The notes under the pieces were generated by a model. That model saw nothing but the letters and a program-made list of their open reading frames with translations, was not told where the DNA came from and made no database searches. A stretch of DNA of 64,000 nt from Macrolepiota albuminosa. Lineage: Eukaryota; Basidiomycota; Agaricomycetes; Agaricales; Agaricaceae. This document shows positions 13,641-49,424 of this stretch, one piece after another (position 1 is the first letter of the stretch; each line of letters starts with the position of its first letter). The position numbers were made by a program, and so were the translations under genes. Where the stretch lies: contig JAMWFC010000005.1 of the NCBI GenBank assembly GCA_027475525.1, positions 310,001-374,000 of the forward strand. The letters run 5' to 3'.

Positions 13641-16600
13641 CCGGGACGACTGCCGCGCCCCCCGCGCATGCCTCACCCACGCCCGTCCGAGACCTCAAGG
13701 CCCCTGATCGACCCCCAAACATTCCTCGGAACAAGTACAAAGGGCCGAACTACCCCTGCCGGTCTCAGACACGCGTCACACCCGCTCCGGCCGATGCCTC
13801 CACGACCCCGACCGACCCGAGCGCACTCGACATCAAGATCATTGGGGCCGCCCCCTTCGCCCGCCTCATGAGGGATGGGACTCCCACGTTTCAGCTGCAC
13901 ACCTTGCCTTCTCTCCCGGAAGAACACCTACGAGGGGACGCCATTCCCCCGGAACAGAAAACCGAGGAGCAAATCCTCCGAGAAGTAGTTCCCCCGGAGT
14001 ATCACGAGTTCGCTGACGTATTCTCCGAAGGAGACGCCAAGGAGATCCCCCCTCACCGCCCCTATGATCACACCATCGACCTCGAGGAAGGAGCCACCCC
14101 CCCTTTCGGCAAGGTCTACAACATGTCGGAGGTCGAACTCCGGGCTCTCAAGGACTACCTCAACGAAATGCTCGGTAAGGGATTCATCCGACCCTCCGCC
14201 TCCGCCGCCGGAGCCCCGGTTCTATTCGCCAAGAAGAAGGACGGCTCGCTCCGACTCTGTGTCGACTACCGGGGACTCAACAAGATCACCAAGAAGAACC
14301 GCTACCTGCTCCCGCTCATCGGCGATCTGGTCGATCGACTCCGCAGTGCCAAGGTCTACACGAAGATCGACCTCCGCTCCGGTTACAACAACGTCCGCAT
14401 CGCCCCGGGACACGAGTGGAAAACCGCGTTCCGCACGCGGTATGGTCTGTTTGAGTACCTTGTAATGCCTTTCGGAATGACTAACTCCCCCGCCACGTTC
14501 CAATACTTCATGAACGACATCTTCCACGACATGAGCGACGTCTTCGTGATAGTCTACCTGGACGACATCCTCATCTATTCCGACTCGAAGGAGGATCACC
14601 AGAAGCACGTCCGGCAAATCCTCGAACGCCTCCGGGAGCACAATCTCCACGCCAAGCCCAAGAAGTGCTCCTTCCATACGAAAGAGGTTGAGTATCTTGG
14701 CGTCATAGTATCCCCGAACGGCATTCGCATGGACCCCCACAAGGTCGAGGCCATCGTCAACTGGCCGCAGCCCCGGAACGTCAAGGAAGTACAGTCCTTC
14801 CTGGGTTTCGCTAACTTCTACCGGAGGTTTATAGACAACTACTCCGGGATTACGAAACCCCTCAACCGGCTCACGCGCAAGGACATCGCCTGGAACTGGG
14901 ACAGTAAGTGCCAGAGCGTCTTTAACTTGCTCAAGGAGGCTTTCACAGTCGCCCCGGTACTCCGGCACTACGATCCGGCCCTCCCGATCATCCTGGAATG
15001 TGACGCGTCCGACTACGCCATCGCCGGGATCCTCTCACAGATGGAGCCTGACGGTGGGGAGCCCCGGCCAGTCGCTTTCTACACCCGGTCCATGATCAAC
15101 GCCGAGCTCAACTACGACATCTACGACAAGGAGCTCCTCGCCATCGTCGAAGCCTTCAAGCAGTGGCGAGCCTACCTCGAGGGAGCCCGACACCGGATTC
15201 AGGTCTACTCGGATCACAACAACCTGCAGTACTTCACCACGACCAAACAGCTTAGTCGACGACAGGCCCGATGGTCCGAGATCCTCTCGGAATACGACTT
15301 CACGATCCAGTACCGCCCGGGACGCCTTGGCGCCAAGCCCGATGCCCTCACCCGTCGACCGGACGTCTACCCCAAGAAGTCATTCGAGGCGGAGCGCAAT
15401 GCGTTCAATCATCGCGTGGTGATCCCTCCCGAACACCTGAATGCCGTACTGATCTTAAACGACAAAGGAACCCTGAACCAGATCCGCCGCGCTCCCCGGG
15501 ACAAGTACTTCACCGATCACGACCTCCGAAACCCTTCCGACGGAACTGACCGGGACCCCGCCTTCTCCTTGTCCCCCGACGAGAAACTCCTCCTCCGGGA
15601 CGGCCGCATCTACGTCCCGGATCACGCCCGACTTCGCTACGACGTCCTCCGTCAACACCACGACCACAAGCTCCGGGGACATCCTGGAATACGTAAGACC
15701 CTCCAGCTCATCTCCCGGACTTACTTTTGGCCAGGGTTGAAGAAGGACGTGACCCGTTACATTCGATCATGCGAGCCCTGCCTCCGGGCCAAGGTCCCCC
15801 GACACCGACCGTACGGACTCCTGAAACCCCTGCCGGTCGGACGACGCCCCTGGTCCTCAATATCTCTGGACCACATCGTCGAGCTCCCGGAATCTGAAGG
15901 GTTCGATGCTATTCTTGTCGTTGTGTACAGGCTGACCAAACAGGGCATCTTCCTACCCTGCCACACCACGGATACCGCCCCGGACTTCGCCCGGCTGTTC
16001 CTCGAGCACGTCTTCGCCAAACATGGACTCCCGGACGACATCGTCTCCGACCGTGGCCCTCTCTTCATGTCCAAGTTCTGGACTTCCCTGTGTAAGGCAC
16101 TTGAAGTAAAGACTAACCTCTCTACCGCCTACCACCCCGAAACCAACGGCCAAACCGAAAGGGTCAACCAGTCCCTCGAGCAGTACCTCCGACTGTACGT
16201 CAACTACTTGCAGGACGACTGGCGCGCTGAGCTCCCCCTGGCCGAGTTCACCTACAACAACACGCCGCACTCTGCCACCGGGGTATCCCCTTTCTTTGCC
16301 AACAAGGGATACCACCCTCGACTGACACTCTCGCTCCGGGACATCCCGTCACACGCCGCCCACGAGGTCGCCCGGGATCTCCAATCCCTTCACAAGTTTC
16401 TCCGGGAAGAGATCGACATCGCGAACCGGGCCTACGCGAAACACGCCGACCGGAAACGGGAAGACACCCCCGACTGGACCCCCGGGACAAAGGTATGGTT
16501 AGATTGACGCCACCTCCGCACCCGCCGGCCCTCCCCAAAACTCGATCACAAGCGTCTCGGCCCGTTCAAAATATTGAAGAAGGTCTCATCCCACGCCTAC

Positions 16601-21090: not shown

Positions 21091-21759
21091 TTCAGGCACT
21101 TCCTGCACCCATGCTAGTGCCTCCACTAGCTTGAGTCCAACGTCTTGATTGCGGCATGCCAAGCATTCCTCGGAAGTGTGGCTCCAGGAGGTCGAGGCCC
21201 CCGATTGCCTTGTGGCCTTCTGCTGCACATACATTTGCAGCTCAATAGTGAGCACTCTCACCATCAAATCAGTATATTTTGTACTGAATACATTGGGCAC
21301 TTTGTGCTCTTGTCGCCTAAGTGCTACTATATGTGCTGATGCATAGCGCTCGAGTTATGCTTGGGTGGTATATTTCATCACTTCTGGGTGCAAATCCCAG
21401 AACACCTGCAATCACACAGTGTACGCAGTTTTTAGCCGCTGCTCATCTGCTCTGGCGTCGTCATCACTTGATGACTCAATTGCCTCCTCTGGAAGCTCTA
21501 CAGCCTCTGGAGCTTCCTCCACTGCTGGCATGCACGGAAATCAGTTTTCCATGCGGCCTACTTCAGGGCTTGCAGCCTCCTCTGGTACCTCTTCCATGCG
21601 GGCTTCCGCTATCTTAGAGGGCATTGAGCCTGCTGCAGGCTGCCTGGTCCCACTACTCTGGCTCGGAGGGATAGCTCTCCCAGCCTGTATGGCTGACTCG
21701 GTGTCTCCTGAGATGCTAGGCACAGTAAGTAAGGCTATGTGGCTAACGCCACATAGCGG
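21091..21759 (-). pseudogene. A' : deletion remnant of an A-family element (gag fragment)
   Basis: The minus strand encodes a diverged piece of A-type gag (VFSTKYTDLMVRVLT, SWSHTSEEC, PSKIAEARMEEVPEEAA). At its 5' side the LTR start and hairpin (21757-21734) run directly into leader bases (gcctagcatct) and then mid-gag, so most of the LTR and the first third of gag are deleted. At 21090 it is interrupted by the LTR of element A. The first 11 bases of its LTR lie at 35571-35581, on the far side of element C. Confidence 0.75.
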
Positions 21760-22829
21760 TGATAGGCTTCTACTCAGACTGAGCGCATCAAGGGACATTA
21801 TAGGCCAACCGACACTTGACGTATTCAGGACTCTAGCGACCAGTTGGGAATATAGAGCAGCTCTAGCTCTGGCAAATTACTACAGGATGTGGAAACTTAT
21901 CCTAACCCCTAGCTACCAGGCCTACAGCGCACTCCTTTCACCTAGCCCAAGGACGAAGGAGGCTCATAACGTATAGCGCTAACACAACGGCGGGAGAGGA
22001 CTATAACTAAACCCCGATCACTTCCAGAAGGAGCCAGCAGCAGGCGCTGCCATTGGACGAGGCACTTCAATCAGAAGTCTAAAGGGATCAATGACGGCGG
22101 CACTGGATATACTTAAATCCAACATCTGGACCTGACAGGAACTAATACAATGAGTAGCGCTGACATTAGCGCTCACGGCGTCTGTCGAGGATTTTCCGAC
22201 CATACCCCGGAACGGCCTGGCCAATCGGAGTTATAGAAAAGTGAGCAGACTCGTACAACTCTAAGTCAATATAGAGTCACCGCAGGTCGCCGTGGGTCAT
22301 AACGCCGTTGGTCGCCGTCAGCCATGTGCACAAGGTCGCCGTTGACAGGTCGCCGTTAGAGTAAACCATGAGGAGAGGCGCTAGGAGGTAGCGCCGCAGA
22401 TGGACTTGTATCTTGGCAAACACGGTAGCGCACTGTATATAAAATAGCTACTTTTCATGTATATAACAACGAATCGTAACCCCTCGAACTCACAGTTACA
22501 CTTAGCGTTCAACTCGCGCTAGCCTCCTCCGACTTTGTCACTAAGTCGGGCGCTAGCTCCGTCTATCTCGTCTTCATCGTTTACGGTGCCACTTACGGGC
22601 ACAATACGCTGCGCTACTCGTCTTTTCCCCAATATCTTTGCCTAAACCACGACACTAACCGTCTGCCAGGTAGCCCCCGAAGCGCTACAATCTAGCGCAT
22701 CATTTTACTACCTCCACTTGAGCGCACCGGGACCCTGTCAGGACTCCTCACAACTACGTACGCCAAGCGCTGGAGACGGCGTTGTACTGCGTATACGTCC
22801 AGCGCACCCAACCACAGTTGGCGTCATCA
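21760..22829 (+). repeat. Element C 5' LTR (1070 bp)
   Basis: Starts TGATAGGCTTC, ends GGCGTCATCA, and matches 34497-35566 base for base apart from one site. It contains a TATA-like box (tgtatataaaata) near 22434-22446 and several short repeats of the type gtcgccgt near 22270-22360. Confidence 0.95.
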
Positions 22830-22832
22830 TTT

Positions 22833-22849
22833 TGGAGCCCACCGCGAGG
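22833..22849 (+). promoter_or_regulatory. tRNA-type primer binding site of element C
   Basis: TGGAGCCCACCGCGAGG begins three bases after the LTR with the TGG expected to pair with a tRNA CCA end. I cannot name the tRNA without a tRNA set. Confidence 0.6.
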
Positions 22850-23035
22850 GGTTCTTCTGAGACAGAATTCCACCGGAAACTCAAGCCCAGCGACAGCGCC
22901 GCCTCCTGTTGGAGAGCGTGCTTGAACCAAGTACCACCGAATCACCACATTTACCAGGCGCGTTACCGAGACAGACTTTGGAACAGGAGCTTGAGGCCGC
23001 ACCAGACAGTCTAGCCGAGAGCTTTTTCCCATTTT

Positions 23036-23189
23036 CCCGACCATTTGAATACTTAGCAGGCGAAAACCATACGCCGCTTACGCCTCTAGAAGAGTTATCT
23101 AGGCTATTATCGCCCGACCATTTGAATACTTAGCAGGCGAAAACCATACGCCGCTTACGCCTCTAGAAGAGTTATCTAGGCTATTATCG
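23036..23189. repeat. 77-bp tandem duplication, 5' of C gag ATG
   Basis: Second copy from 23113. Confidence 0.97.
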
Positions 23190-23294
23190 CCAGAATCTAG
23201 CGACTCGGAGCTAACTGAGCCGGTACCTACGACATCGACGCTAAGTAACACGAGCACCACCACCCTTCCTACCTCGACAAATACACCTATCGGA

Positions 23295-25654
23295 ATGGAT
23301 CAGCCGAACAATCAGCGCATGCCACCCCGAAACCACTTCTTGTCGCCAAAATGGGACGAAACGAAGCCTCGCGAACTAACGCAGTACTTCAAAGAGTTGG
23401 AGTATCTGCTACGCGATTGCCGGGTGACCGACGATACACAAATGAAAGAATACGCCGCCAGATACGTCTCATACGACACAGCCGAATCATGGACAGGGCT
23501 GAAGGAGTTCCAAGGACTTACTAGTGACGCACCACCTAGGCCTTTTACCTATGATGAATGGAAAAAGGCTATCATTCATTTATATCCTGGCGCCGAAGAA
23601 GCTACGCGTTATACGGTAATGGAAATCCAGAAGCTAGTACAGGACACCTTTGCGGCTGGTATCTATACTTTAGGAGCGCTATCAACTTATTATCGTGATT
23701 TCCAGCGGATAGCAAGATGGCTGGTCCAAAATGGGAAGTTATATGGGAACGAGGAGCATCAACTTATTATCGTGATTTCCAGCGGATAGCAAGATGGCTG
23801 GTCCAAAATGGGAAGTTATATGGGAACGAGGAGCGCTGTTTGTTTCAACAAGGATTCCTGACTTTGTTATGGACTAAGATTGCGCGACGCTTGGAGATCA
23901 TTATGCATGACCATCACCCCGAGGAACCATACGACATAGAAAAGGTCTTTGAGGCAGGAAAGTGGGTATTAAAGGGCACGGATACGGGTATACCATTACA
24001 GCGACCTGGGGCGGACCATGGAGGAATGGCACCCAAGACAGAGTCGCCAGCACCTAGCGCCGCCAATGACCGTAATGGGTACGTCAAGAAGGAGGATTTG
24101 GAGAATGCCGTTAACAATGCAGTCGCTAACGTCATGAATAAACTGGAAACCTTGATCTCGACTAGTCTTTCGGCGCCTAGAAACAACGTACCAACGGGAC
24201 TTTGCCATTTTTGCGGCGAGGCAGGACATACCATGACCAGGGGTAGGTGCGCTATCCTTGAACAATATCTGCGACAAGGGAAGGCGCGCCGGGGAATGGA
24301 CGGGAAACTAGTCTTACCCTCGGGCGCTATCATTCCCCTATATCCCGAGCATAAGACGTTCCAGGGACGCATTGACGAGTGGCACCGTCGGAACCCCGGG
24401 AACTTAGCGACAGGCAACCTGAATAGCACGACGACAACAGAAGCGGAGGCGACTCCTCAACAAGCACTAATTCACGAGGTACTCCAGCTAAACGCTATCA
24501 GTGACCGACCCACGCTGTCCCGCGAGGAAAGGATTGAGACGCTAGAAAAGGAACTGAGGTCGCTAAAGAATCAGGTCTTCGATGGAGTGGAGATCAAAAA
24601 GGGCAAACAGCCTTTAAAGGATTACAGGCCGTCGGGCGCGACGACAGGCCCCGCCCCAACACCAGCCTCAACCTCTAGCACTAACGACGAAGTACCAGAA
24701 GCCACCAAGGCGCCGGCCGTTCCGGAACCACCGCTACATCCTTACGCTGGCCTAGGGGGCAACTACGCCCCGCCCCTAAATCGTAACTTCGGAGCGCCAG
24801 ATAAACCTATGGGGGGATATCGACCCACAGCGCCTATATATGATCTGGAGAAGTCGAAGTTAGTTTTTGATCGCATCATGCAAAGTCAGGTTACGCTATC
24901 GGTAGGAGAGTTATGCAGCGTGGCGCCAGATGTCAGAAACCAGATGCGTACCGCGGTTACCCCTCGACAAAACGTAGCTAACAATGTAGCGACGGTGGAC
25001 GAATGCAACGACGCGCTGCCTGGTTTCGCATATATAACCAAGACGGTAGCTCCTGAAACTAAGGAAGAGGTCGCACCACCTAAAGAAGCCACGTCTGTTG
25101 ACCTGGTCAAAACCTACCTCAAATTGCTAAGATCTAGCGACGATCCCGCCATCTTGACTGTAGCCCAAGACTCTCATGCGATTCGCTCAATTATGCTGAC
25201 AGTTGATGGGAAAAGCGAAATAGAGTCGATCGTGGATAGCGGATCCCAAATTATTTCAATGGCTGCCGACGTCGCTAACGAGCTGGGTATCATTTACGAT
25301 CCAACGATCATTCTTAACATGCAGAGCGCTAACGGCACGATTGATCGATCCTTGGGGATGGCTCGGAACGTGCCATGCGCTATAGGCGATCTAACGTTCT
25401 ATCTACAAATTCACATACTTAGATCGCCTGCCTACGATTTATTATTAGGAAGGCCCTTCGATGTGCTAGCGCGATCAGTAGTCAAAACAACGTCCGAGGA
25501 GGAAACGACGCTAACTATTAGCGACCCCAATTCTGGAGTCAGGAGAACGGTACCGACATTTCCCCGAGGGAGGTTCCAGAAGCCTGGACCAAGAAAGCGA
25601 CCTTACGTTAGCGACGAACCTTGCGAGTGTTTTCCGGCGCCATCGAGGAGATGA
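23295..25654 (+). CDS. Element C Gag-protease
   Basis: The first ATG in frame is 23295 (MDQPNNQRMPPRNH); the same frame is open upstream to about 22880 without an ATG, interrupted by the duplication 23036-23189. The capsid-like domain is near 23330-23960 (FKELEYLLRDCRVTDD; RIARWLVQNGKLYG), broken by duplication 23681-23834. The zinc knuckle is CHFCGEAGHTMTRGRC (near 24200, CX2CX4HX5C). The protease is near 25200-25480 with DSG (SIVDSGSQIIS) and LLLGRPFDVLA. The ORF ends at TGA 25652-25654, whose first bases are shared with the pol ATG (ATGA). Confidence 0.85.
23681..23834. repeat. 77-bp tandem duplication, in C gag
   Basis: Second copy from 23758. Splits the gag frame. Confidence 0.97.
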
Positions 25655-28600
25655 GTGATGAGGATCATGGAGATGAAGCGCTTGTTTTGGACTATAATCA
25701 TCGGACTGGGCAAGTAACCCTTATATCATATACCCCTTTAGCCCCTGAGATCTTGAACACTTCTACGTCGCTTACTAGCAAAGCTTTATCCTACTTATAC
25801 CTCACTGCATCCGATATTACTGAAAATCTTTCGACAGACACTTATTTCGTTTCTTCCCCTGATTCTAAAGAACCTTTGATATCCGGTTTTGCTAGAAACC
25901 AGAGTTCCATTTATAATACGTTTGCTAACAACAGTACCCCTAAGCGCAAAGGGGTTCAGGTTAAAAAGAAATACAAGCCAGTAGCGCTTAAAACGAAACC
26001 GGTAGCAAGCGGCGTACCCGAAGAATTTCGCATCGAAAGAAAGATCATTGGAGACCCGTTAGCGACCCTTCCCGAGCTTAATCCGAACCCGCCACCCTTT
26101 GAGCCTACTGGACGATTTACGGAAGAACGACGAGCGCTATTCCTTAGCACCCACGATACAGGCTTTCTATCGACGGCGGAACTAGATGTATTGACCGACA
26201 TTATGCGAAAACAAAACGAGGCATTTGCTTGGAAGGATTCCGAACGCGGTAAACTGAGAACTGACTTCTTTCCGCCAGTGGTTATACCAACGATACCTCA
26301 TGTACCTTGGACCGAGCATAACCAACCGATACCGCCGGGCATTGAAGCGGAGGTTTGCCAAATTATTCGTTTCAAAATAGCGGCGGGAGTTTACGAGCCT
26401 TCCAATTCGGCATACCGGTCGCGATGGTTTTGTGTACTAAAGAAAAATGGCAAGCTACGTATAGTTCACAGTCTGGAGCCGCTGAACAAAGTCACGATTC
26501 GTCATTCAGGGGTACCGCCCTTCCCCGATCACGTCGCTGAATCGTTCGCAGGAAGAATATGTGGCGCTACCCTGGATCTGTACGTTGGCTATGACGAGCG
26601 CTTGATTCACCCTTCCTCTCGCGACTTAACGACATTTCAAACGCCATTCGGAGCGCTACGACTGGTTACACTTCCCATGGGGTGGACGAATTCGGTACCC
26701 ATATTCCACAACGACATTACGTTTATTCTACAACCCGAAATACCCCACCATGTGCTTAGTTTTATCGACGATGTTGGCGTTAAGGGCCCAAAAGATTGGC
26801 GCCTTGTAGATGGCAAGCCCAAAGTGCACCTGGAAAATCCTAATATCCGCATGGCGCTATGGGACTTCTTCCAATTGGTCAACCGGGTGCTTCAGCACAT
26901 GAAATATTCTGGTGGAATGTTCTCAGGACACAAATTGGTTCTTTGCACGCCACAATTTAAAATTTTAGGGCACGTTTGCACGCCAGAAGGCAGGATCCCT
27001 GAGGAGAGCCGATTAGCGCTTCTAGAGAAGTGGGGAGTCTGCCATAACCTCTCGGAAGTTCGCGCGTTTCTAGGCACGGTAGGCGTGCTGCGCATGTTCA
27101 TACACCATTTTTCACATCGAGCGCACCCGCTAAATCGCTTAACTCGTTCAGGGGTCCCCTTCGAATTCGGACCCGACCAAATTAACGCCCAAAAAGACTT
27201 AGTGAAGGCACTGCAGGAAGCGAAGCCATTGGTACCCATCGATTATACTACATCCGATCCAGTTATACTTGCCGTCGACACCTCTTACATCGCGGTCGGC
27301 TTCTTTTTATGTCAATGTGATAGCGCGAATTGAAAAATCAGACGCTACCATCGCTTCGGATCAATTACCCTTAACGACAGAGAGTCGCGCTATAGCCAGC
27401 CCAAACTGGAATTATACGGATTGTTTCGAGCGTTTCAGGCGCTACGCATGTATCTTATTGGGGTTCGAAACCTGATCGTCGAAGTCGATGCACGCTACAT
27501 CAAAGGGATGCTTCAGAACCCAGACATTCAACCTTCGGCTAGCATGAATCGCTGGGTAGTAGCGATACTAATGTTCCACTTCGAGCTCGTGCATGTTAAG
27601 AGTGCGTTTCACAGACCTGATGGACTATCTAGGCGACCTAGGCAGCCGGAGGACGAAGCGCTAGACGAAAGCGATAACGACGTATTTGACGACTGGATTG
27701 ACCGGTTGCACGGTTTCATACATATTATTCAATTGCCTATTTCGGCCCTTCGCGAAGACCAACCTATCTCGACCTGGCTACACCCTATCATTCCATACCA
27801 ACCTAAACCGTATCAGGCTCCATCGACTTTTTACACGGCCAGTATCTATAACGTCGCTAAGCCGCATAATGATCTAAAGATAGTCGAGGAACCAAGACCC
27901 TTACGGGAAGATAGTCGCAACCTTCCATATTCGGCGGTACCTTGTAGCGCCAAGGCTAAGTCAGAAGACCAACGAGTTGATCAGGTTAGGAAATGGTTAC
28001 AGGATTTGCGCCGACCATCAGACCTTATGGACACGGAATACGCCACCTTCATTCGATATGCAACGACTTTCTTTATGGCTGAAAATCGGCTTTGGCGACG
28101 AAATAGGTCTGGCGCTCACAAATTAGTGATCAGGCCAGAGGGACGCGTTAGGATTTTGCGCGCTATGCATGATGACTTGGGATATCGAGGACTCTACGCA
28201 ACGCGGGCGAATTTGTTGGAACGTTTCTGGTGGCCTCAAGTTAGCGCTGATATAGCATGGTATATTCGTACTTGTCATCTCTGCCAAATCCAACAGACGC
28301 GCCAAGTCCTTATTCCCCCAACCGTAGCGACTCCAGCACCCTTGTTCGGAAAAATATATATCGACACTATGCACATGCCCAAGTCGGGGCGCTACAAGTA
28401 TATTATCCAGGGAAGGTGTTCCTTGGTGCATTGGCCAGAGTTCCGTATGCTCCAGCGGGAAAATACCGACGCAATAGCTAAGTGGCTCTTCGAAGATGTT
28501 ATTTGCAGATGGGGAGCCCTTCACGAGATTGTTACAGACAACGGAGCGCCAATAGTTAAGGCGCTTACCTACCTCGCTAAGAAATACAACATACAGCATA

Positions 28601-29331
28601 TTCGAGTCTCAGGATACAATAAACGCGCTAACGGTATAGTGGAAAGGCCACATTTTGACGTACGACAGGCGCTATTTAAGGCGGTAGACGGCGACGAAAG
28701 TCGCTGGAGCGAAGCGACTTATTCGGTCTTTTGGTCTGAACGGGTTACCGTACGGAAGAGGATGGGCTGCTCTCCCTACTACGCGGCGACTGGCACCCAT
28801 CCCCTGCTTCCAGCAGACGTTGTGGAGGCAACATACCTACAACCACCACCTAACTCAATCCTGTCCTCTACCGACCTTATTGCTAGGCGCGCTATTGACT
28901 TACAACGACGCATGGAGGATCTAGAGCGCCTACACGAGGTGGTATTTCAAGCTAGACGACAAGCCGCACTACAATTTGAAAGTGAGCATAGCGCTACTAT
29001 CCGGGACTACAATTTTACAGCTGGCGCCTTAGTGCTAATGCGCAACTCGAAAATCGAAGTAACCCATAACAAAAAGATGCGACCTCGATACCTAGGGCCC
29101 CTCATAGTCGTTTCCCGCAATAGGGGAGGAGCCTACGTACTCTGCGAGCTGGACAGCTCGGTTTTGCATCGACCGGTAGCAGCGTTTCGACTCATTCCCT
29201 ACTTAGCGCGTGAACACATTCCACTACCTTTGCCGGCACTAGACATTGACACGGCCAAACTGCGAGAGCTTGAAGAGACTGAGTTGGTGGACGATGACGA
29301 GATCACTCCTGATGACGAAGAGGAACAATGA
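25651..29331 (+). CDS. Element C Pol: RT, RNase H, integrase
   Basis: It starts at the ATG overlapping the gag-pro stop. RT lies at about 26280-27100 with an FIDD catalytic box (SFIDDVGVKGP, near 26760) instead of YLDD. RNase H is near 27240-27660, interrupted by one in-frame TGA at 27331, after which the frame stays open (LELYGLFRAF, VEVDARYIKGML). Integrase has MHDDLGYRG...CHLC (the second zinc His is Tyr), then YIDTMHMP, VTDNGAP and NGIVERPHFD as DDE positions. The C-terminus has a GPY-like motif (RYLGPLIVVSR) and an acidic tail; I see no chromodomain. Apart from the TGA it reads as an intact enzyme of about 1225 residues. Confidence 0.88.
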
Positions 29332-29640
29332 AAGACCACAGAAAACTTGAAGAGACTGAGTTGGTGGACGATGACGAGATCACTCCTGATGACGAAGAGG
29401 AACAATGAAAGACCACAGAAAACGAGGCGCTAGCGCTAACCGCTGGCGCCTCGTTTTCTGTGGTCTTTCATTGTTCCTCTTCGTCATCAGGAGTGATCTC
29501 GTCATCGTCCGGCCAAACTGCGAGAGCTTGAAGAGACTGAGTTGGTGGACGATGACGAGATCACTCCTGATGACGAAGAGGAACAATGAAAGACCACAGA
29601 AAACGAGGCGCCAGCGGTTAGCGCTAGCGCCCCCTGCTAC
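29269..29640. repeat. Inverted and tandem repeats at the end of element C pol
   Basis: The last coding bases of pol are present three times in direct orientation (from 29269, 29346 and about 29520) and once inverted (about 29425-29509). The second copy and the inverted one form a hairpin with a 65-bp stem around a 15-base loop. The first pair is a 77-bp tandem duplication. This may be a mis-resolved assembly path through a palindrome rather than real DNA. Confidence 0.75.
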
Positions 29641-29736
29641 GGACTTAAAACATGCGCTAGTAATCATGAAGAGGGTGCATAACTGGGCGATACTAATACA
29701 TGCGGCATTACCAAACTATACTGGACTACAAAAAGC

Positions 29737-31380
29737 TTAAGACAACGATGACAACCGCCGACGAGGACCCTTGACTCGCTCCTTGTGTCGCCTATAGGCG
29801 GGAGGAGCACCGGAAGGGGGACGAATGGCAGCGTTAGGCGGCGCGGGTGGAGTGACTGGAGAAGGAGGTATGGGAGCGACTGGAGAAGGAGGTACGGGAG
29901 CGCGAGGAGGAGGCACGGGAAGGGCGATTGTAGGTGGAGCGCGGGAAGGACCCGGGGGAGCAGCGGGACGAGCAGGGGACAAGTACCACCTGGCCTCGTC
30001 CAAGCGACGCTCTAAAGCTGTGAAAGGAACGATCACGCGGTCAAGCACGGCTCTACTAGCGTTAAGGTTGACAAGAACCGGAAGAGGGAGCCAGGAAAGG
30101 CTCTAGAAAAGGGGCAGGGAGTTAGCTAACCAAAGCTGGGCGAAAGAGGGATATAGGTACTAACCAAACCCCCGGTCTCGCGGAGAAGACTATGAAGGCT
30201 CAACGCGGTACCAGTAATGGTCTCCTCCTACGACGAGCATAAGTATTCCCTAAAGCATGCGCTAATAAAGGGGTTTACGGTGACTAGGGACGGGTCTGTA
30301 TCTATCTCCCATTCGGCGGAGGCCGCTAGCAGGATCCGGTATCGGCGCACAAGGGTCAATATGTTGCTGTTCTCTTGCGGAAAGCCGCCGTCAGGCATTA
30401 ACGCGAGGAAGCGCTCGAGGCGATCTAGGATGGGAGGCCGGTGAATGAGTACGGGGTCATCAAGAAGGAGGGAAGGTTCTGGCATGATATGATACTAACC
30501 GGGTTAACTGCGCCAGAATCCATAAAATACCTCTAGCTGGTTGCAGGGTCACGGATGCTTGGGAACTCTTACATGCGCAAACAATCATGAGGGGGGGGAA
30601 GACAATGATGCATTTCATATATCTACGACAAAAGAAATCAACTAGCCAAAATCTGTCAGCCCAGTGGCGCCACAAAAAAGAAGAAGCCGACTTACATAAA
30701 CGACATGGGAGATGGACGAGTATCAAGGACCGGGCAAAAGGAGAGGCCTGGAAGGCCGCCAGCCTTCAGCTGGACCGCGAAAAAGCCGACCACCAGTAGA
30801 CGAGCGGGGCGCCTAGCGGGGCAATGCGTTAGAGGGAAGAAAACAAGGTAATAAGGTAACGGACCAGGTAGTGACTCTCCTCAAGCAGCAACTCAAGACG
30901 CTCCTTCGTTTCCTTGGTCGCGATTTGCTTTATTGGGCGACTATCAGAAGAGAAGGAGGGCGAAAAAGGCAATAGCGCACCTGAAAAATCCGACTCCAGT
31001 TTTTCTCCATACCGAAACGGGTCAACGGCAGGTCATCGTTCCAGATCTCACAGGCCACACGAAGTAGCTGGCAGCGACGACCTAACTCAACGACTCCGTC
31101 GGTCAGCCCGGGCACGCCGACCGCTGGGTAGTGGTGGAAGAACGAGGTAGCGCGTTCCAGGAAAGTGGGGGGATCCATTACGATATGAGCACGATCACAA
31201 CGGGCAGTCCACACGATGCCGGTTGGGCTTTCCATCACAAAGACTGATGAGATGCTGTCGGGGCATGGGCAATTTATAGGACTCGGACGGTGTTTCAACT
31301 AGCGACAGCGTGGGAGGGCATTTCTCAAGGGGCTTGGACCCTGACGCAGACACGAACCAATAGGATGCGCTGGAGTCCAT
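29737..31380 (-). CDS. Element C antisense gene 2 (downstream), exons incomplete
   Basis: Minus-strand reading pieces lie in tandem: a start at 31380 (MDSSASYWFVSASGSKP) or 31235 (MESPTGIVWTARC), then DPPTFLERATSFFHHYPAVGVPGL to 30990; a helical piece at 30485-30300 (LIHRPPILDRLERFLALMPDGG); and a C-terminal Pro-rich piece at 30048-29737 (FTALERRLDEARWYLSP). Short gaps between them suit introns, but I could not fix every junction. No domain recognised. Function unknown; it lies just 3' of antisense gene 1 and on the same strand. Confidence 0.45.
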
Positions 31381-31393
31381 TTTAGGTCGCACA

Positions 31394-31839
31394 AAGAGGG
31401 TATTAACCTTCGAGATCTAGCGCTTATACCCACCATCACCGAATAACCACAAGCGATCAGTGGCACTCTATTTCTTATACATTAAAACTTCTTGCATGAA
31501 TCAACTTATTTTTCTACGAATAACCACAAGCGATCAGTGGCACTCTATTTCTTATACATTAAAACTTCTTGCATGAATCAACTTATTTTTCTACAGACGA
31601 TACCTATTTCTTCCTAGGCTGGCACGATATTGGCTATTGGGTCGCGCTGGTAATAGGGGTTTTTACGCCATGATGATTTACTGAGCGTTTCCCCTTTTTT
31701 CTTACTTTGTATTTTGATTACTTACAAACTGACGATTTCGAAACAAGGGGAGGGGAGCGTTTATTTTAGTATGGCTATCACAGACTACGTATCAAATTTT
31801 TCAAAGTCCACAAAAATTCGAAGCGCTACGGGCCGGCGA
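31394..31839. other. Spacer between the two antisense genes of element C
   Basis: AT-richer sequence with the 77-bp duplication 31440-31593. I see no convincing ORF. It would hold the promoter of antisense gene 2 and the terminator of antisense gene 1. Confidence 0.5.
31440..31593. repeat. 77-bp tandem duplication, in C spacer
   Basis: Second copy from 31517. Confidence 0.97.
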
Positions 31840-34350
31840 CTACGCATCAGACGCGGAGGGAGCGGGATCACCCAATGGAAGCAAGTCCCCGTCTTGAATG
31901 GCGTTACTCGCTTGCCACTCAAGCGCATCAGTGATGTCGTCATGGAGCTCAAGCAGGAGGAGCTCACGGCGCGCTAAGGTGGAAACACGAGGACGGAGGA
32001 GGGCGAGTTCGCTACCAACGACGTCGGTTGCGTCCTCGATCTGGCGAAGTTGTTGATGGAGATCGGCGGCAGGACGAAGGGGAGTGACAGGATAAGAGAA
32101 CTCATCCCCAAGCCAAGGATAGGCGTCGCCGGAAACGCGCATGGCGGGGGGAGGAGTCCAAAAAGGATCGAACTTAGCGAAGGTCAGCGGAGAGATGAAC
32201 CAACTAGGAAATGCAGACTTACTCGAACGGTTACGGGAGCACGGGGGGTCCATTCATGGCGCTCATCGCCTGGGGACATGGCCCTAGCGGAAGAAAGGCG
32301 GATGCCGTAGGAAGGCAAGTACCTCCAGCGGCGGCGGCGCTCGCCCTGAGCTACTAGGGTCCCTTCGGACTCAGGCGCGGTAGAGGACTCGTGAGTACTG
32401 GGGAAATAAGAGAGGCTACGAGGAGGGGTAAGAGATGGTGTAATAGGAAGGGCAACGGGGGAGGCGCTAGCCACGACAGGCTCGGGGGCAGGGGTAGCGC
32501 CGGCAACAGACATTACGACATCTTCGGCGGGAGGGATATTCACGACAACCAGAAGCGAAGGAGTAGGGGACCTAGCGACAAAGAAGTTAGCACCGCCTGG
32601 CAAGGAAAACCCGAAGACTACGCACCGATTACCGCTGGGGCCACTCTGATAAGGGTTAGCGGCGAAAGGGGGAGTAATGCGAAGCAGAAGAGCGCGTACC
32701 GCCAACAGCGCATTGGTGTCGACTACAGGCCCAGCCTCATCGTCATCCTCGCCCTCAGCATCCCTCTCGGTATCCTCGCCTTCATCAGTAGACGACTCGG
32801 TAGAAGACAAGACGACAGGAGTAGCAGGCGCTAGCTCCCGGCGCTTACCGGGACTCTTGCTAGGAGAGGCGACAATAGGCTTACGCTTCGAAGGGACGGG
32901 ACGACGGGGAGAACGGGCAAAGGGGGCGGTCACGGTAGTACCATCTTGGGTGATGGGAAGCGCTAGGCTTGCAGCGCTAATCACAGTGGGCTGACGAGTA
33001 GCGGCCAAATCGCGTTGCTGCAACACAAAGGCCCGGGCGTTACGAACTAAGACTGCGCGCTCGTAATTGCGCTGCATGATAGCGTCCCTACCACGTTCGC
33101 GAGTACGAATCCCATTGAAGGCACAGCCCCGTTTCAACGCATCGCAACGGTAGCAGGGAAGAGAGGCGGTAGGAAACCAGCAACCCTCAGGATCGTTTTC
33201 AGACCAGCATTTATCGCACTGGGAAAGAAGTTAGCGACGTCATCAAACTTTCAGGGACAAACATGCACTTACCGCACCAATCTTCGCCCTAAAGGCGCGG
33301 TGCTCCACGGGTGCCACCGTAACCTTCTTCTTAGCGCCGAGCACCTGGACACCAGCCGGGAGGCCGGTATCAATGACGGTAGTATCGCGACGAAGGCGCA
33401 GCAAATCACGAAGCTCCGCGTCGGTAAACATAGTTTGGTTGGGCACCTAAGGAGGGCTCGATCAGGCGCTAGAGACAAGCGATCTTAAAAGGAAACACTT
33501 ACAACATACAAAGGGGCAACACGAGCAGGGAGATTGACCTAAGAAGAAGAGTGAGTAGAAGAACTAGAGGCAAGAAGACAAGGACGCACGGTACGTTTAG
33601 GAGGACTAGCGAGAGTAGGGGGCGCGCGATTAATAACGACGGCGAAGTTACGGGGGGGAAGGCGAGAAATAGTATGGGTAGGTCCGGGCCGGGGCTCACT
33701 GGCGGTAACGGCAATCCGTTTGATGGCCGAGTGAGGAGGCGCAGTACGAGTGGGAGAAGCGACGATGGGTGCAGGGCGAGCGGGAGAAGCATCGCCACGA
33801 AAAGGACTACCAAGAACGGGAGGAGGCAGAACGGAAACAGGAGCAGCAGGAGCGGCCGGAACGGAAGGGACGGTAGAGGCCGACGGGGCGCTAGGAAGAC
33901 TTGCAACGGTGGGCGACGTAGCAACCGACTACTCAGGGTTAACACGGAAAATGTGAGGAAGAAAAGGAGGGAACTCACCTCGCCAACCTCGGTACTAGCC
34001 AGCAGGGCGTCGATCTCGTCGGATAGGGAAGGAGCCTAGCATGGGCGCTGAACCTTAGCGCCACGAACCTAAAATCAAACCTAAAAACTTACGAACAAGT
34101 CCGCGAACGGTAGCAACCAATCGGCACCCTCATATTCACGGTACCGAGCCATGCACCATTCACGAACCTCGACGCCCCACGCCCAGGAACTGTCAGAGCC
34201 GCGGACCACGAGCCAGCGCCGATAGAGTTGCATAATGCCAGGGACGGTTTGTGGCGCATCGGCGGGACCGACAGACTTAGCGCGATCGAATAAATAAGAG
34301 GCTTTAGCCAGGAAATTGCGAAGAGCAGAGGCATCGAAAGGAGTGGACAT
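31840..34350 (-). CDS. Element C antisense gene 1, seven exons, cysteine-cluster protein
   Basis: Exons read on the minus strand: 34350-34093, 34035-33979, 33928-33590, 33538-33503, 33446-33273, 33218-32223, 32172-31840. Every exon is a multiple of three, all introns are 50-57 bp, and most donors are gtaagt or gtgagt. The product would be about 730 residues. Exon 1 has LYRRWLVVRGSD...EVREWCMARY. Exon 5 has FTDAELRDLLRLRRDT. Exon 6 opens with a cysteine cluster, CX2CX8CX8CX2CX6C (33218-33123), followed by basic and acidic low-complexity segments. Exon 7 is helical with leucine heptads. The decayed relative at 45431-48515 keeps the same cysteine spacing. A zinc-binding, possibly nucleic-acid-binding role is inference only. 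Confidence 0.75.
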
Positions 34351-34484
34351 GTTGGAAAGATGGGAAGGAAAACACGAGAAGGTGAAGGGCTAAAAACGAT
34401 TTTTATAAGGCGCCGGCGGCAGCATACGGACCGTAGCGCAGTCAAATTAATGACGGCGTTTGACTGAGGACAGTCAATTTTTCA

Positions 34485-34496
34485 GTTGGGGGGAGA
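34485..34496 (+). promoter_or_regulatory. Polypurine tract of element C
   Basis: ttggggggaga directly precedes the 3' LTR. The same tract precedes the C' LTR at 48620-48631. Confidence 0.7.
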
Positions 34497-35566
34497 TGAT
34501 AGGCTTCTACTCAGACTGAGCGCATCAAGGGACATTATAGGCCAACCGACACTTGACGTATTCAGGACTCTAGCGACCAGTTGGGAATATAGAGCAGCTC
34601 TAGCTCTGGCAAATTACTACAGGATGTGGAAACTTATCCTAACCCCTAGCTACCAGGCCTACAGCGCACTCCTTTCACCTAGCCCAAGGACGAAGGAGGC
34701 TCATAACGTATAGCGCTAACACAACGGCGGGAGAGGACTATAACTAAACCCCGATCACTTCCAGAAGGAGCCAGCAGCAGGCGCTGCCATTGGACGAGGC
34801 ACTTCAATCAGAAGTCTAAAGGGATCAATGACGGCGGCACTGGATATACTTAAATCCAACATCTGGACCTGACAGGAACTAATACAATGAGTAGCGCTGA
34901 CATTAGCGCTCACGGCGTCTGTCGAGGATTTTCCGACCATACCCCGGAACGGCCTGGCCAATCGGAGTTATAGAAAAGTGAGCAGACTCGTACAACTCTA
35001 AGTCAATATAGAGTCACCGCAGGTCGCCGTGGGTCATAACGCCGTTGGTCGCCGTCAGCCATGTGCACAAGGTCGCCGTTGACAGGTCGCCGTTAGAGTA
35101 AACCATGAGGAGAGGCGCTAGGAGGTAGCGCCGCAGATGGACTTGTATCTTGGCAAACACGGTAGCGCACTGTATATAAAATAGCTACTTTTCATGTATA
35201 TAACAACGAATCGTAACCCCTCGAACTCACAGTTACACTTAGCGTTCAACTCGCGCTAGCCTCCTCCGACTTTGTCACTAAGTCGGGCGCTAGCTCCGTC
35301 TATCTCGTCTTCATCGTTTACGGTGCCACTTACGGGCACAATACGCTGCGCTACTCGTCTTTTCCCCAATATCTTTGCCTAAACCACGACACTAACCGTC
35401 TGCCAGGTAGCCCCCGAAGCGCTACAATCTAGCGCATCATTTTACTACCTCCACTTGAGCGCACCGGGACCCTGTCAGGACTCCTCACAACTACGTACGC
35501 CAAGCGCTGGAGACGGTGTTGTACTGCGTATACGTCCAGCGCACCCAACCACAGTTGGCGTCATCA
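34497..35566 (+). repeat. Element C 3' LTR (1070 bp)
   Basis: Direct repeat of 21760-22829. It is followed by the target duplication gcgg (35567-35570) and by the first 11 bases of the interrupted A' LTR. Confidence 0.95.
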
Positions 35567-35570
35567 GCGG

Positions 35571-45430: not shown

Positions 45431-48400
45431 TCAAAGTGAGTAAGGTGTGATATTTCTATGTAGGTGTGGGTGGGTGGGTAAAGATTTTCGAATAAGATGA
45501 AGAGAGTGTATGAAATAAGTGGGTCCACAAGGGGTTGACCCTTGCCGTGATTTGTTGCTGGGCTCATCCAACACCTCCCTCATCCAAGGGGAAGTGGGGC
45601 CATAGGGCAGCAGCCACTGCCAGTTGGGTTCCTCCCTCAATGGTTCCTCTCCCTCGCCCTCTGCCACTGGAGGTTCTGCTACTGCTTCTCCTGCCCCCAG
45701 GTCTTCCTCCCCAACTGTGTCCTCATTATTGGCAGCTGCTGCCGCTTTTCCTGTGTTTCTCTCTCCCTCTCCTACCATTGCTGTGAGTGTACTCCCTGCT
45801 TCCTCTCTACTCTCCTCTACTACTAGGGGTGCCATTGCCATATCCCCCTCATTGTCAACTGCTGGCAAAGAGGCCCTCCTCAGATGAACAGGAGACAGTA
45901 GGCAACTAGGACCAGCTTCTTTACTGATGACAGGGAGACGGCTGGTGGCACGCATGGCTTCCAATTCTTTCATCTCCATGTTTTCAGGGGTGGAGGGAGG
46001 CAACACCATGTGAGCATGTTTTGCTCTGCCCCTTGGCGGAGGAAGGGACTTCACATTTTGAGGGGACTATTGTTTCTTGGCAATCCCTGGCACCTCGCTT
46101 GCTGACAGATTCAGACTCATCCCCTTGACATGTCAGCAGTGCCAAGGAGGCCTTGTTAACCTTTGCCATCTTACCAGCAGCAATGTCTTTCCACTGTCTC
46201 TTCACAAACTTCCTTGCCCTCTTAACCAGCACAGCCCAAGAAAAAGTCCTTTTCATGAGAGCATCTGGCACGCTGTCATGCTCACAACTCTTAGCACCAT
46301 CAATGGTGCAGGCACATTTGAGTGTGCCACACTGGTAGCAGGGCTGGGTGCCAGTTGGGAATCAGCAGCTTTCTGGGTCATTGTTGGCCCAGCACTTATT
46401 GCAGCTTACTGCCTCTTGTAATTCTTTAAATGCTTGGTGCATTGCTAATGACACCATGCATTTGTTCTTCATCTTGGGCATCTCAACCCCCTCCTTGAAC
46501 CCTCATCCAACGCTACCTCCTCCCAACATGGCAGCAGCAGCCCCTCCAACTCCTTGTCCTCAAACAAAACCTGACTGGGAAGCTGAGGCTAGGTCAGGAA
46601 CCAGTCTGAGATCACTAAGAGCTACTCACTGTGTATTGAGGGGCTGCTACTCTGTGAGACTAATAGAGGGTATTAGCAACCAATGATAGGACCACACACA
46701 GGTTAGGCGCATCAACAGCAGGCTCGGCATTGGCTCTGGAAACCTTGCTGCACTCGTTCCGAACTTGGCGCACGTGTTTTATCCATTTTAAGCCATTTCC
46801 GACAGCCACACATGACAAGAGACGTACCCAATCAGTGATAGTGCTGATGGCAGCAGGAATGACAAGTGACAGCGGGCAACATGCCATCGGCAAGTGTTGA
46901 CAGATGGCATCACTCAGGCAGCATGTGGTCTCACTAGCCAGCGGCAGCGCTTACAAGTTAGAATGATGGTATTTCCCTGTGATTGACAGCTTGGCATTTC
47001 ACCTTGGTGCCTGGCATCGCCTAGCACTTTCTTGTTATTTGGACAGACAGTATTTTTGTTAACCTCTCAATATTTAGTTTAATGCATGGTGACTACTTGC
47101 ACTCTTTTCAGTTCACTGCTCCTTGGCAACGCTTAGTCGTTTAATGACGGTGAACTCATCTTCACTATAAATATCTACCATTGTAGTCAGTTAGAAACAG
47201 AACAGAGTGCCCCACTTTACACCCCTCAGTTCACCCTACGGTTCAGGTTTCTTTTGAGCTGACTAAGTTCATAGTCGCCAACTGTCTGGACACTCTTGGC
47301 CTGCTTGCCGCAGTTACGCTTATGGAACCTATGTGCCTAGCACTTACGGCAGGCATCATGCAGCTTAGTCGTTGCTAAGCCTCTAGTTTCCTTCCCGTGT
47401 CCCCTTGCCACATTTAATCGTGTTCATCCTCCTACCCTTTTAGGCACACTTCGTCATTGGCGCAACTTCCTTACTGCCTTTCCTTGCTGACTATCGTTAC
47501 TGACTTACACCCAACCTTGCTGTTTAACTTTTTTTCAGACTTGTTTCCTGGGAACTGCCCAGGACTCCCTCAAACTTAGTGTGCCCAACGCATTATTACC
47601 CAGGTCAGTAGCCATAAACCATATCTGCTACTGATCTACTTTTGGGCATCATCACCAATAACAACTCTAAAATGTTGAAGACTCACCTTCTTCTTGGAAG
47701 CTGAGACCAGCTTCCTTGGCAAACCCAATCAACTTGCCAGCAGCACCAGGCTCTGAGCACTGCCACCATCTCTCACCATCAGAGTCTCCCTCCCAGCTAC
47801 AGGCATATCCTCCTTGGCAATCCTTTCCTCCTTGACCCCCGCTTGCCTGCAATCCTCCAACACACATTCCTGTTCAGCCAATAGTTGTTCTCACTTCTTG
47901 AGGGCTCTGGTGATTTCCCATGAATCATGGGAAACCTCCTCCTGGAGGGCTGCCATCTCCTCATTGACTTGTAGATGCACCAGGGGTGCCAGCACCTCCT
48001 GCTTACTATGAAGAGACAAGTCAGACCAGAACTAAGTCAGCAACCAGTTAGAAATACTCATCTTGGCACAGCACCACTTACCATCATGGGGAGTGCACCA
48101 GAAAGGATGTCCTCCAGCTTGTCCTCAATAGTGGGAACAGCAGGAGGCACCTAGGGTCTAGATTAGTTAGCAGACCCACAAAACAAGGAAATGGCTCTAG
48201 CCACTCAGCACCATGGTGCTTCACATAGTGGGCATGACACCACTCCCGCACCTTGATCTCACAGTCCCAGCCAACCCCAAGAACGTGAACCTCTAACCAC
48301 TGTTCATATAGGCACATCACACCAACAATCAGGTTAGTAGGCATCTTGGCACCCACATTTTCAATATGCTGAGGAACTTGTTGGCCTTTGCAATGTAGGC

Positions 48401-48631
48401 ATAGACAGCATCTTGTGCCTCCTGGGTTGGCACAATAGGTGGAGTTGGAAATCAGAAAGACATAGTTGCAGAATAGAGTGCCAGAAATTTTCAAGGAAAA
48501 GAGATGGAGTTCCAATTCACATGCTAGGACTATAAGGAGATTTCAGGGGATGCATGGGCCACCAGTCATAAAACAGTAATGGTAGCTATTTTTGGTGACT
48601 GGGGACAGTCAGTTTTTCAGTTGGGGAGAGA
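45431..48631 (-). pseudogene. C' : CpG-depleted remnant of a C-like element, antisense gene 1
   Basis: The minus strand keeps pieces of the C antisense gene 1. Near 48330-48180 it reads YEQWLEVHVLGVGWD...VREWCHAHY (exon 1). The cysteine cluster at 46403-46308 has the same CX2CX8CX8CX2CX6C spacing. The segment after it is at 46271-46140 (DALMKRTFSWAVLVKRARKFV). Pol is absent. CpG is almost missing, and one cluster Trp codon has become a stop. A solo LTR (46684-47654) is inserted in it, and a polypurine tract (48620-48631) leads into a C-type LTR. Confidence 0.75.
46684..47654 (+). repeat. Solo LTR of the C' family (971 bp)
   Basis: Starts TGATAGGACC and ends GGCATCATCA, like the C LTR. It is flanked by ccaa on both sides (46680-46683, 47655-47658), a 4-bp TSD. 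It lies within the antisense gene of C'. It arose by recombination between two LTRs. Confidence 0.85.
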
Positions 48632-49424
48632 TGATAGGACTACACACAGGCTAAACGCATCAACGGCAGGTTCTGCATCAGTTCCAGACATCTTCTGTGT
48701 GTGTGCCAAACTTGGTGCACATGATTTATCCATTTTAGGCCTTACTCAATGGCCATGCATGGCAAGTAATAGATTCAATCAGTGATAGCACTGGCAGCAG
48801 CTGGAATGACAGCTGGCATCATGCTGCTGGCAAGCATTGACAGGTAGCATCAATCAATTAGCATGTGGTGCAGCTAGCTGATGACAGTGCTTATGAATTA
48901 GAAATAATGTCATTTACTTGTGATGGGCAGCCTGACATTTACCCTGGCATCTGATGCCTCTTGGCACCCCTCCTTCAGTCAGACAGACAGCTTTCTTGCT
49001 TCATTTCTCAACATTTAGTTTAATGCATGATGTTTAATTATATTACTTACAGTTCACTGCCCTTTGGTGACCCTTAGCTACTTGGCAATGGGGAACTTGT
49101 TTCTCACTATAAATACTTACCATTGTTACTAGTTACTAGAGAACAGAGTACTCCAGTTTACACCCCTCTCACCTCATGGTTCAGATTTCTTTTGAGCTGA
49201 CTAAGTTTCTAGTCGCTAACTGTCTGGACACCCTTAGCCTGCTTGCTGCAGTTATGCTTACAGAATCTATGCACCTTGCACCTATGGCAGGCTTCACACA
49301 GCTTAGTCATTGCTAAGTCTCTAGTTTTCTTACCACGTCCTCTTGCTGCACTTACTCATATTTACCTCCCCACCTCCTTTAGGTGCACCTTGTCTTTAGT
49401 GCACCTTCCTTACTGCACACCCTT
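48632..49424 (+). repeat. C'-type 3' LTR, truncated
   Basis: Starts TGATAGGACTACACAC after a polypurine tract and resembles the solo LTR at 46684 throughout. It is cut at 49425 by a minus-strand B-type LTR. Confidence 0.75.

What the first reader, a model, noticed from the sequence alone, without database searches (positions are those of the whole stretch)
31840..34350. Intact seven-exon antisense gene inside a young Ty3 element (C)
On the strand opposite gag-pol, seven exons of 258, 57, 339, 36, 174, 996 and 333 nt join in one frame with no stop through six introns of 50-57 bp with mostly gtaagt/gtgagt donors. Seven multiples of three in a row are unlikely by chance. The product has a CX2CX8CX8CX2CX6C cluster that begins exactly at an exon start. 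A retroelement cannot carry introns on its own genomic strand without losing them, but antisense introns survive the RNA stage, so antisense placement explains how a spliced gene can ride in it. I know of no described function for this gene.
Basis: partly seen in the sequence, partly recalled or inferred. Interest (0 to 1): 0.88.

Follow-up and report, generated by a model that had tools for sequence, protein, structure and literature searches.

The report
Spliced antisense gene in fungal retrotransposon
A fungal jumping element carries, on the strand opposite its own copying genes, a conserved gene split into eight pieces that looks like a DNA-binding regulator, showing how a retrotransposon can keep an intron-rich gene of its own.

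Summary
Confirmed with one correction. A gene lies antisense between pol and the 3' LTR of a Ty3-type element (21760-35566). The gene is under selection. Between two element lineages (78-79% DNA identity) dN/dS is 0.10 (0.08-0.14), and 0.05 in the exon with the Cys cluster. Introns have fallen to 67% identity but keep GT/AG, and in the second lineage intron 6 holds an in-frame stop. A third lineage has the gene in the same place at about 40-55% aa identity, with introns 1-5 at the same positions. Two smaller spliced antisense genes (B, C) follow it in one copy read of each of the first two lineages. All 21 homologues found are Termitomyces proteins. Best explanation: a self-encoded nuclear regulator (zinc-cluster-like domain, C-terminal coiled coil) with its own promoter beside the polypurine tract, acting on the element's own expression. 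That function is inferred; no RNA data could be reached. Antisense extra genes in this position are known in plants (Grande, Retand) and a fungus (Boty brtn), and HTLV-1 has HBZ. Seven introns, three antisense genes and an unmatched protein family make it a new variant.

The parts
21760..22829 (+). 5' LTR (TGAT...ATCA), preceded by GCGG 21756-21759
   Evidence: direct repeat; 1 difference in 1070 bp to the 3' LTR
23295..25654 (+). gag and aspartic protease, frame broken in this assembly by a 77-bp exact duplication at 23681
   Evidence: ORFs; PF13650 and PF13975 over cut-off; duplication
25621..29331 (+). pol: RT, RNase H, integrase; interrupted by a stop at 27331-27333 in this copy
   Evidence: ORFs; Integrase_H2C2 over cut-off, RVT_1 and RT_RNaseH_2 below cut-off; one open frame in another copy
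34093..34350 (-). gene A exon 1 (ATG at 34350): helical N-terminal domain
   Evidence: dN/dS 0.12; homologues; helices in the model of P0001
33979..34035 (-). gene A exon 2
33590..33928 (-). gene A exon 3, Pro/Ser-rich, fastest evolving
   Evidence: dN/dS 0.27
33503..33538 (-). gene A exon 4 (12 codons)
33273..33446 (-). gene A exon 5 (FTDAELRDLL motif)
   Evidence: dN/dS 0.07
32626..33218 (-). gene A exon 6; Cys cluster at its start (33218-33123), then basic and acidic stretches
   Evidence: dN/dS 0.05
32223..32571 (-). gene A exon 7
   Evidence: dN/dS 0.11
31840..32172 (-). gene A exon 8, coiled-coil-like C-terminus, stop at 31840-31842
   Evidence: dN/dS 0.08; long helix at the matching place in the model of P0001
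34397..34408 (-). TATA-like box (TTATAAAAATCG) upstream of gene A ATG
   Evidence: sequence; function inferred
34460..34477 (.). palindrome TTGACTG-N4-CAGTCAA, candidate binding site
   Evidence: exact in 30 of 40 loci; TGACTG-N4-CAGTCA in the two third-lineage loci
34486..34496 (+). polypurine tract TTGGGGGGAGA
   Evidence: sequence; lies in a 43-bp block (34461-34503) identical to both third-lineage loci
34497..35566 (+). 3' LTR, followed by GCGG 35567-35570
30723..31235 (-). gene B, antisense: exons 31235-30981, 30927-30865, 30812-30723 (last exon and its weak donor GTCCGT less certain)
   Evidence: dN/dS 0.18 (exon 1), 0.10 (exon 2); 150 scored copies of exon 1; splice sites; last exon's end read from the frames
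29737..30485 (-). gene C, antisense: exons 30485-30279, 30227-30165, 30102-29737 (donors GTAAAC and GTTAGT are weak)
   Evidence: dN/dS 0.10 for exon 1 with saturated dS; splice sites; related to B by hhalign

Best explanation
Gene A is an accessory gene of this Ty3 lineage, transcribed antisense from a promoter of its own in the 147 bp between its ATG and the 3' LTR, spliced of seven introns, and translated to a 712-residue protein. Shown: the gene, its exon-intron structure by comparison, its purifying selection, and its place in three element lineages. Inferred: the protein enters the nucleus, dimerises through its C-terminal coiled coil, uses the Cys cluster to contact DNA of the element itself (candidate site: the palindrome next to the polypurine tract) and regulates the element's own transcription, perhaps against CpG-directed silencing. 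The sense genomic RNA carries the introns as reverse complements that cannot be spliced, so the gene survives reverse transcription whole.
For: Eight-exon model open in two lineages, dN/dS 0.104 (0.08-0.14). Third lineage: same place and strand, four exons matched at about 40-55% identity, ORFs of 717 and 662 aa, introns 1-5 at the same positions. Of 67 gene matches with an RT on the expected side, 66 are on the opposite strand, and 66 of the 67 distances are 4.9-6.9 kb. The block upstream of the ATG, 34351-34500, is 138-139 of 150 identical between lineages 1 and 2, against 67% in introns. Regulator-like layout: Cys-cluster exon at dN/dS 0.05, basic then acidic stretches (sequence), helical N-terminus and long C-terminal helix in the model of P0001. 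Palindrome exact in 30 of 40 loci. Four decayed copies (L037-L040) have lost 43-55% of the window copy's CpG sites against 5-13% of other C, as expected if copies are methylated. Antisense genes of plant Retand are proposed to be DNA-binding regulators (PMC11963269, passages); HTLV-1 HBZ is a spliced antisense product that inhibits transcriptional activation (PMC1459196, abstract).
Against: No RNA or protein data. No Pfam family matches the product, so not the zinc-cluster family PF00172 either. The first half of the Cys cluster lacks the basic residues that contact DNA in Gal4-type proteins (recalled). AlphaFold gave the Cys region block means of pLDDT 31-40, and no solved structure is similar under E 0.001. 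In the third lineage the TATA-like stretch lies directly before the ATG, too close for a normal start. The palindrome lies beside the polypurine tract and may be kept for plus-strand priming or as an RNA hairpin; it also occurs in altered form in 5 of 40 loci. Binding to it is untested.
Confidence: 0.55

Rival explanations
1. The protein is an accessory factor in particles or integration (nucleic-acid chaperone, nuclear import or integration tether), not a transcription regulator.
For: Cys cluster and basic stretch could bind RNA or DNA generally; the pol pieces show no chromodomain hit in Pfam at E up to 1; long helices in the model.
Against: Antisense placement gives expression separate from gag-pol, which suits a regulator better than a particle part (inference); gag already has its own zinc-knuckle-like motif CHFCGEAGHTMTRGRC.
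Confidence: 0.2
2. A sequence-specific anti-silencing factor, like VANC of Arabidopsis VANDAL elements: binds element DNA and removes or blocks CpG methylation.
For: Strong CpG decay in decayed copies; gene under selection in the lineages compared; VANC precedent (PMC5735166, PMC10398659; search listing with starts of abstracts only).
Against: No sequence or fold link to VANC was tested; CpG decay alone fits ordinary methylation, and within the second lineage it is weaker (18-32% against 10-12% of other C). It is a special case of the best explanation.
Confidence: 0.2
3. Only the antisense RNA matters (dsRNA, self-limitation); the protein is incidental.
For: A regulatory role of antisense RNA is discussed for plant elements (PMC7264820, passages).
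Against: Third-position pattern and dN/dS 0.10 show selection on the protein; introns in the same region have diverged further.
Confidence: 0.03
4. A captured host gene carried as passenger, without use to the element.
For: Introns resemble ordinary short fungal introns; no relatives outside Termitomyces were found in three capped protein searches.
Against: Purifying selection and fixed position across three element lineages with conserved intron sites. A host copy outside elements was not specifically sought.
Confidence: 0.04

Closest known systems
Antisense additional ORFs between pol and 3' LTR of plant LTR retrotransposons (aORF-3R: maize Grande gene23, rice RIRE2, Silene Retand with TRP28, PvRetro13)
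   Same: Same position and orientation, reported in most copies of a family and conserved like other element proteins; the Grande product is nuclear and has its own promoter; Retand products are predicted to bind DNA (PMC7264820, section 5 and passages; PMC11963269, passages)
   Different: No TRP28 match; seven introns and three antisense genes here; the word intron does not occur in the main text of either paper
Boty brtn (Botrytis cinerea)
   Same: Antisense additional gene between pol and 3' LTR of a fungal element (PMC7264820, section 5; PMC8365987, passages; Zhao 2011 itself not read)
   Different: Ascomycete; sequence not compared here; its intron content is unknown to me
HTLV-1 HBZ
   Same: Spliced antisense gene starting at the 3' LTR of a retroelement; its product inhibits transcriptional activation (PMC1459196, abstract) and is nuclear (PMC11963269, passage)
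   Different: bZIP factor with promoter inside the LTR; here no Pfam match at all and a likely promoter outside the LTR
Fungal Zn2Cys6 binuclear cluster (PF00172, Gal4 type)
   Same: Six cysteines, second half P-C-X2-C-X6-C, then a helix and a coiled coil (family layout recalled)
   Different: First half CX2CX8C instead of CX2CX6C and without its basic residues (recalled); no Pfam match

Membership tests
Ty3 LTR retrotransposon | LTRs, gag, then protease-RT-RNase H-integrase in this order, polypurine tract | tested here: met
   RT and RNase H hits of the window copy lie below the Pfam cut-offs
aORF-3R class (antisense extra ORF between pol and 3' LTR) | antisense, between pol and 3' LTR | tested here: met
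aORF-3R class (antisense extra ORF between pol and 3' LTR) | conserved like gag-pol | tested here: met
   dN/dS 0.10 against 0.03-0.06 for gag-pol pieces
aORF-3R class (antisense extra ORF between pol and 3' LTR) | present in most copies of the family | tested here: inconclusive
   123 exon matches from 121 scored candidates; 56 of 122 RT matches have no exon match in the list, but both lists were capped
aORF-3R class (antisense extra ORF between pol and 3' LTR) | own antisense promoter, nuclear protein (shown for Grande) | not testable with these tools
   only a TATA-like box and a conserved upstream block
TRP28 (PF04195) | Pfam model match | tested here: not met
   not among the matches
Zn2Cys6 cluster (PF00172) | Pfam match and CX2CX6CX5-12CX2CX6-8C spacing (spacing recalled) | tested here: not met
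   no match at E up to 5 for the Cys piece and at E up to 1 for the whole protein; spacing X8 in the first half
DUF3716 (PF12511) | Pfam match over cut-off | tested here: not met
   3 of 25 members, best E 0.12; of 10 scanned alone only P0018, 11.9 bits against 22, profile 29-56 of 59
HBZ-like bZIP regulators | bZIP domain | tested here: not met
   no Pfam match
Boty brtn | sequence similarity to brtn | not tested
   sequence not held

The most novel reading that the evidence does not exclude
A fungal Ty3 lineage carries an antisense regulatory module of up to three intron-rich genes, led by a zinc-cluster-like protein that recognises a palindrome beside the element's polypurine tract and counteracts CpG silencing: a sequence-specific anti-silencing system in a retrotransposon. 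Its introns differ between lineages, so some could have been removed by reverse transcription of the spliced antisense mRNA, which would make the element a natural recorder of its own antisense splicing.
Probability: 0.15. Interest if true: 0.88.

Novelty: new variant of a known kind. Interest (0 to 1): 0.7.

Why it matters
Antisense extra genes of LTR retrotransposons have been described since the 1990s and their function is still given as unknown (PMC7264820, section 5). Here is a family with strong, measurable selection, many copies, three lineages and a clear gene model, in fungi where expression, methylation and gene removal could be tested. It is also a clean case of an element keeping seven introns by holding them on the strand opposite to its genomic RNA.

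Tried and rejected
Rejected: chance ORF chain (codon-position pattern and dN/dS). The shared TAA of the second lineage looked at first like a dead gene; it lies in intron 6 (shown for L031 and L032 only; the other copies that one search lists with one TAA were not read for its place). Idea that genes A, B and C share an N-terminal domain: rejected for A (hhalign probability below 1), kept for B and C (80.6, E 1.3e-5, two sequences each). Solved structures by sequence: one match at E 0.15; fold search: 29 matches, best E 0.51. Paper searches listed no paper that, by title and start of abstract, describes this family; only listings were seen and the library is partial, so this is no proof of absence. 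Genes B and C were sought in the third lineage with their first exons only (tblastn): no B hit, one C hit at E 0.98. The dN/dS of gag (dS 1.5) includes a stretch disturbed by the 77-bp duplication and is rough.

Full report
What was checked. The minus strand from 34350 to 31840 was read by script. The seven exons of the finding are there with the stated lengths, GT..AG introns of 50-57 nt and one open frame. The element around it runs from 21760 to 35566: two 1070-bp LTRs with one difference, GCGG on both sides, a polypurine tract directly before the 3' LTR, and gag-pol on the plus strand. The antisense gene does not overlap gag-pol; it lies in the interval between pol and the 3' LTR.

A missed intron. 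I read 40 loci: the 30 best-scoring and 10 chosen lower down the list. In 13 of the first 30 the seven-exon chain is free of stops; of these, L006 and L008 have AT for GT at intron 4, L029 at intron 3, and L003 has a 322-nt intron 2. Many of the other 17 carry a 77-bp insert (below), stops, shifts or truncation. Six of the ten lower loci (L031-L036) form a second lineage; its copies L031 and L032 are 78-79% identical to the window over the locus, and both have a TAA in the middle of exon 6. At that place the window has GTGCGT...GCTAAC...CTAG, 54 nt, a multiple of three. It is 29 of 54 identical between the lineages where the flanking exons are 80-85%. Removing it gives 712 aa, open in both lineages. 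The gene therefore has eight exons and seven introns.

Selection. Between the window copy and L032 (711 codons, Nei-Gojobori) dS is 0.67, dN 0.070 and dN/dS 0.104 (95% bootstrap 0.08-0.14). By exon: 0.12, 0.04, 0.27, not computed, 0.07, 0.05, 0.11, 0.08 (exon 4 has 12 codons). gag-protease gives 0.056 (rough), the RT part 0.046, the integrase part 0.030. So gene A is under somewhat weaker constraint than pol as a whole, and under equal constraint in exon 6. Introns are 67% identical, yet GT is kept in 34-40 and AG in 37-40 of 40 loci at each of the seven introns. The loci were picked by exon 6, so the 40 of 40 at introns 5-7 is partly due to that choice. Five of seven introns differ in length between the lineages by amounts that are not multiples of three (introns 4 and 6 do not differ), so reading through would break the frame.

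A third lineage. RT copies 86% identical to the window's (seven in the list) led to L043 and L044; two were fetched. Both have the gene antisense between pol and the 3' LTR. Exons 1, 5, 6 and 8 match at about 40-55% identity. Guided by homology and GT/AG, each reads as six exons, all in phase, with ORFs of 717 and 662 aa; introns 1-5 sit at the same places and the Cys cluster again starts an exon. Intron 7 is absent there; intron 6 also seems absent, but that region is too variable to be sure. L043 against L044 gives dN/dS 0.185, with dS 1.6 and so only rough. A decayed relative of this lineage lies in the window itself at about 46.07-48.8 kb.

Linkage. The 123 exon matches and 122 RT matches were compared by coordinates. 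67 exon matches have an RT 2-12 kb away on the expected side; 66 are on the opposite strand and one is not; 66 of the distances are 4.9-6.9 kb and one is 10.6 kb. Counting every pair within 12 kb, 66 have the expected arrangement and 6 another. 56 exon matches have no RT in the list, and 56 RT matches have no exon. Both lists were capped by the tool, so these misses do not show absence.

Other species. Three protein searches found 21 distinct homologues (P0001-P0021), every one named as a hypothetical protein of Termitomyces (five strains). Two of the searches scored only the candidates sharing most words. The longest, P0001, matches exon 1, the FTDAELRDLL motif, the Cys cluster and the C-terminal region, a gene prediction made elsewhere that agrees with this exon model. 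Whether those genes lie in retroelements could not be checked.

The protein. No Pfam family matches; DUF3716 is a weak lead below cut-off. AlphaFold on P0001 with 25 sequences gives mean pLDDT 60.8: helices at residues 13-112 and 125-196, one after the Cys cluster (362-387) and a long C-terminal one (542-603), most with block means of 68-95; the cluster itself is not resolved. Nothing in the PDB is similar under E 0.001. The order Cys cluster, basic stretch, acidic stretch, coiled coil is what one expects of a transcription regulator, but that is inference.

Cis sequences. The 150 bp 34351-34500 are 138-139 of 150 identical between lineages 1 and 2. A 43-bp block over the polypurine tract is identical between the window and both third-lineage loci. 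It holds TTGACTG-N4-CAGTCAA, exact in 30 of 40 loci, with one change in five; in the last five the region is missing or unrelated. A TATA-like box lies upstream of the ATG at 34397-34408; in the third lineage the TATA-like stretch is right before the ATG, which weakens the promoter reading there.

Two more antisense genes. Gene B (31235-30723) and gene C (30485-29737) read as three exons each, with dN/dS 0.18 and 0.10 in their first exons between the window and the C62 copy; dS of C is saturated, some donors are weak, and the last exon of B is less certain. B exon 1 has 150 scored copies of 321 candidates. B and C are related to each other but not detectably to A.

Reading. Shown: a conserved, selected antisense gene with the structure of a spliced gene, belonging to the element. 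Not shown: transcription, splicing in RNA, location, DNA binding. Likeliest function: a self-encoded nuclear regulator of the element, perhaps against CpG silencing: L037-L040 have lost 43-55% of the window copy's CpG sites against 5-13% of other C; in the second lineage the contrast is weaker (18-32% against 10-12%). Known relatives in kind are the antisense ORFs of plant elements and Boty brtn (PMC7264820, section 5 and passages; PMC11963269, passages; PMC8365987, passages) and HBZ (PMC1459196, abstract).

Noticed in passing
window 1850, 5031, 6205, 7160, 9552, 10887, 11049, 12465, 13004, 17097, 17343, 23036, 23681, 29269, 31440, 35635, 53133, 54189, 58175, 60398, 62164, 62708: All 22 exact tandem duplications found (lag 30-299) are exactly 77 bp, as are all 29 found in the 170 kb of loci then held (lag 30-199). 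This looks like k-mer joints left in by the assembly; it causes false frameshifts, here in gag.
   Followed up: yes
29264-29631: Nested direct and perfect inverted repeats of the pol end, absent from the related copy aligned; probably an assembly artefact of the same kind.
   Followed up: partly
31235-30723 and 30485-29737 (minus strand): Two further small antisense genes, B and C, with signs of purifying selection and related to each other; first exons not found in the third lineage.
   Followed up: partly
about 46073-48815: A decayed relative of the third lineage with remains of the same antisense gene, the palindrome at 48596, an LTR from about 48629 and a second LTR-like match at about 46683.
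   Followed up: partly
27331-27333: pol of the window copy is interrupted by one in-frame stop; copies with open gag and pol frames exist in the genome.
   Followed up: no
L037-L040 against the window copy: Decayed copies have lost 43-55% of CpG sites to TG/CA against 5-13% of other C to T, a sign of methylation.
   Followed up: partly
L043 2480-3760 (minus): Intron 7, and probably 6, of gene A are absent in the third lineage; gain or loss undecided.
   Followed up: no
14171-15040, 59719-60435, 5227-6102: Three other RT regions in the window, 22-24% identical to this one; the intervals behind them were not examined for antisense genes.
   Followed up: no
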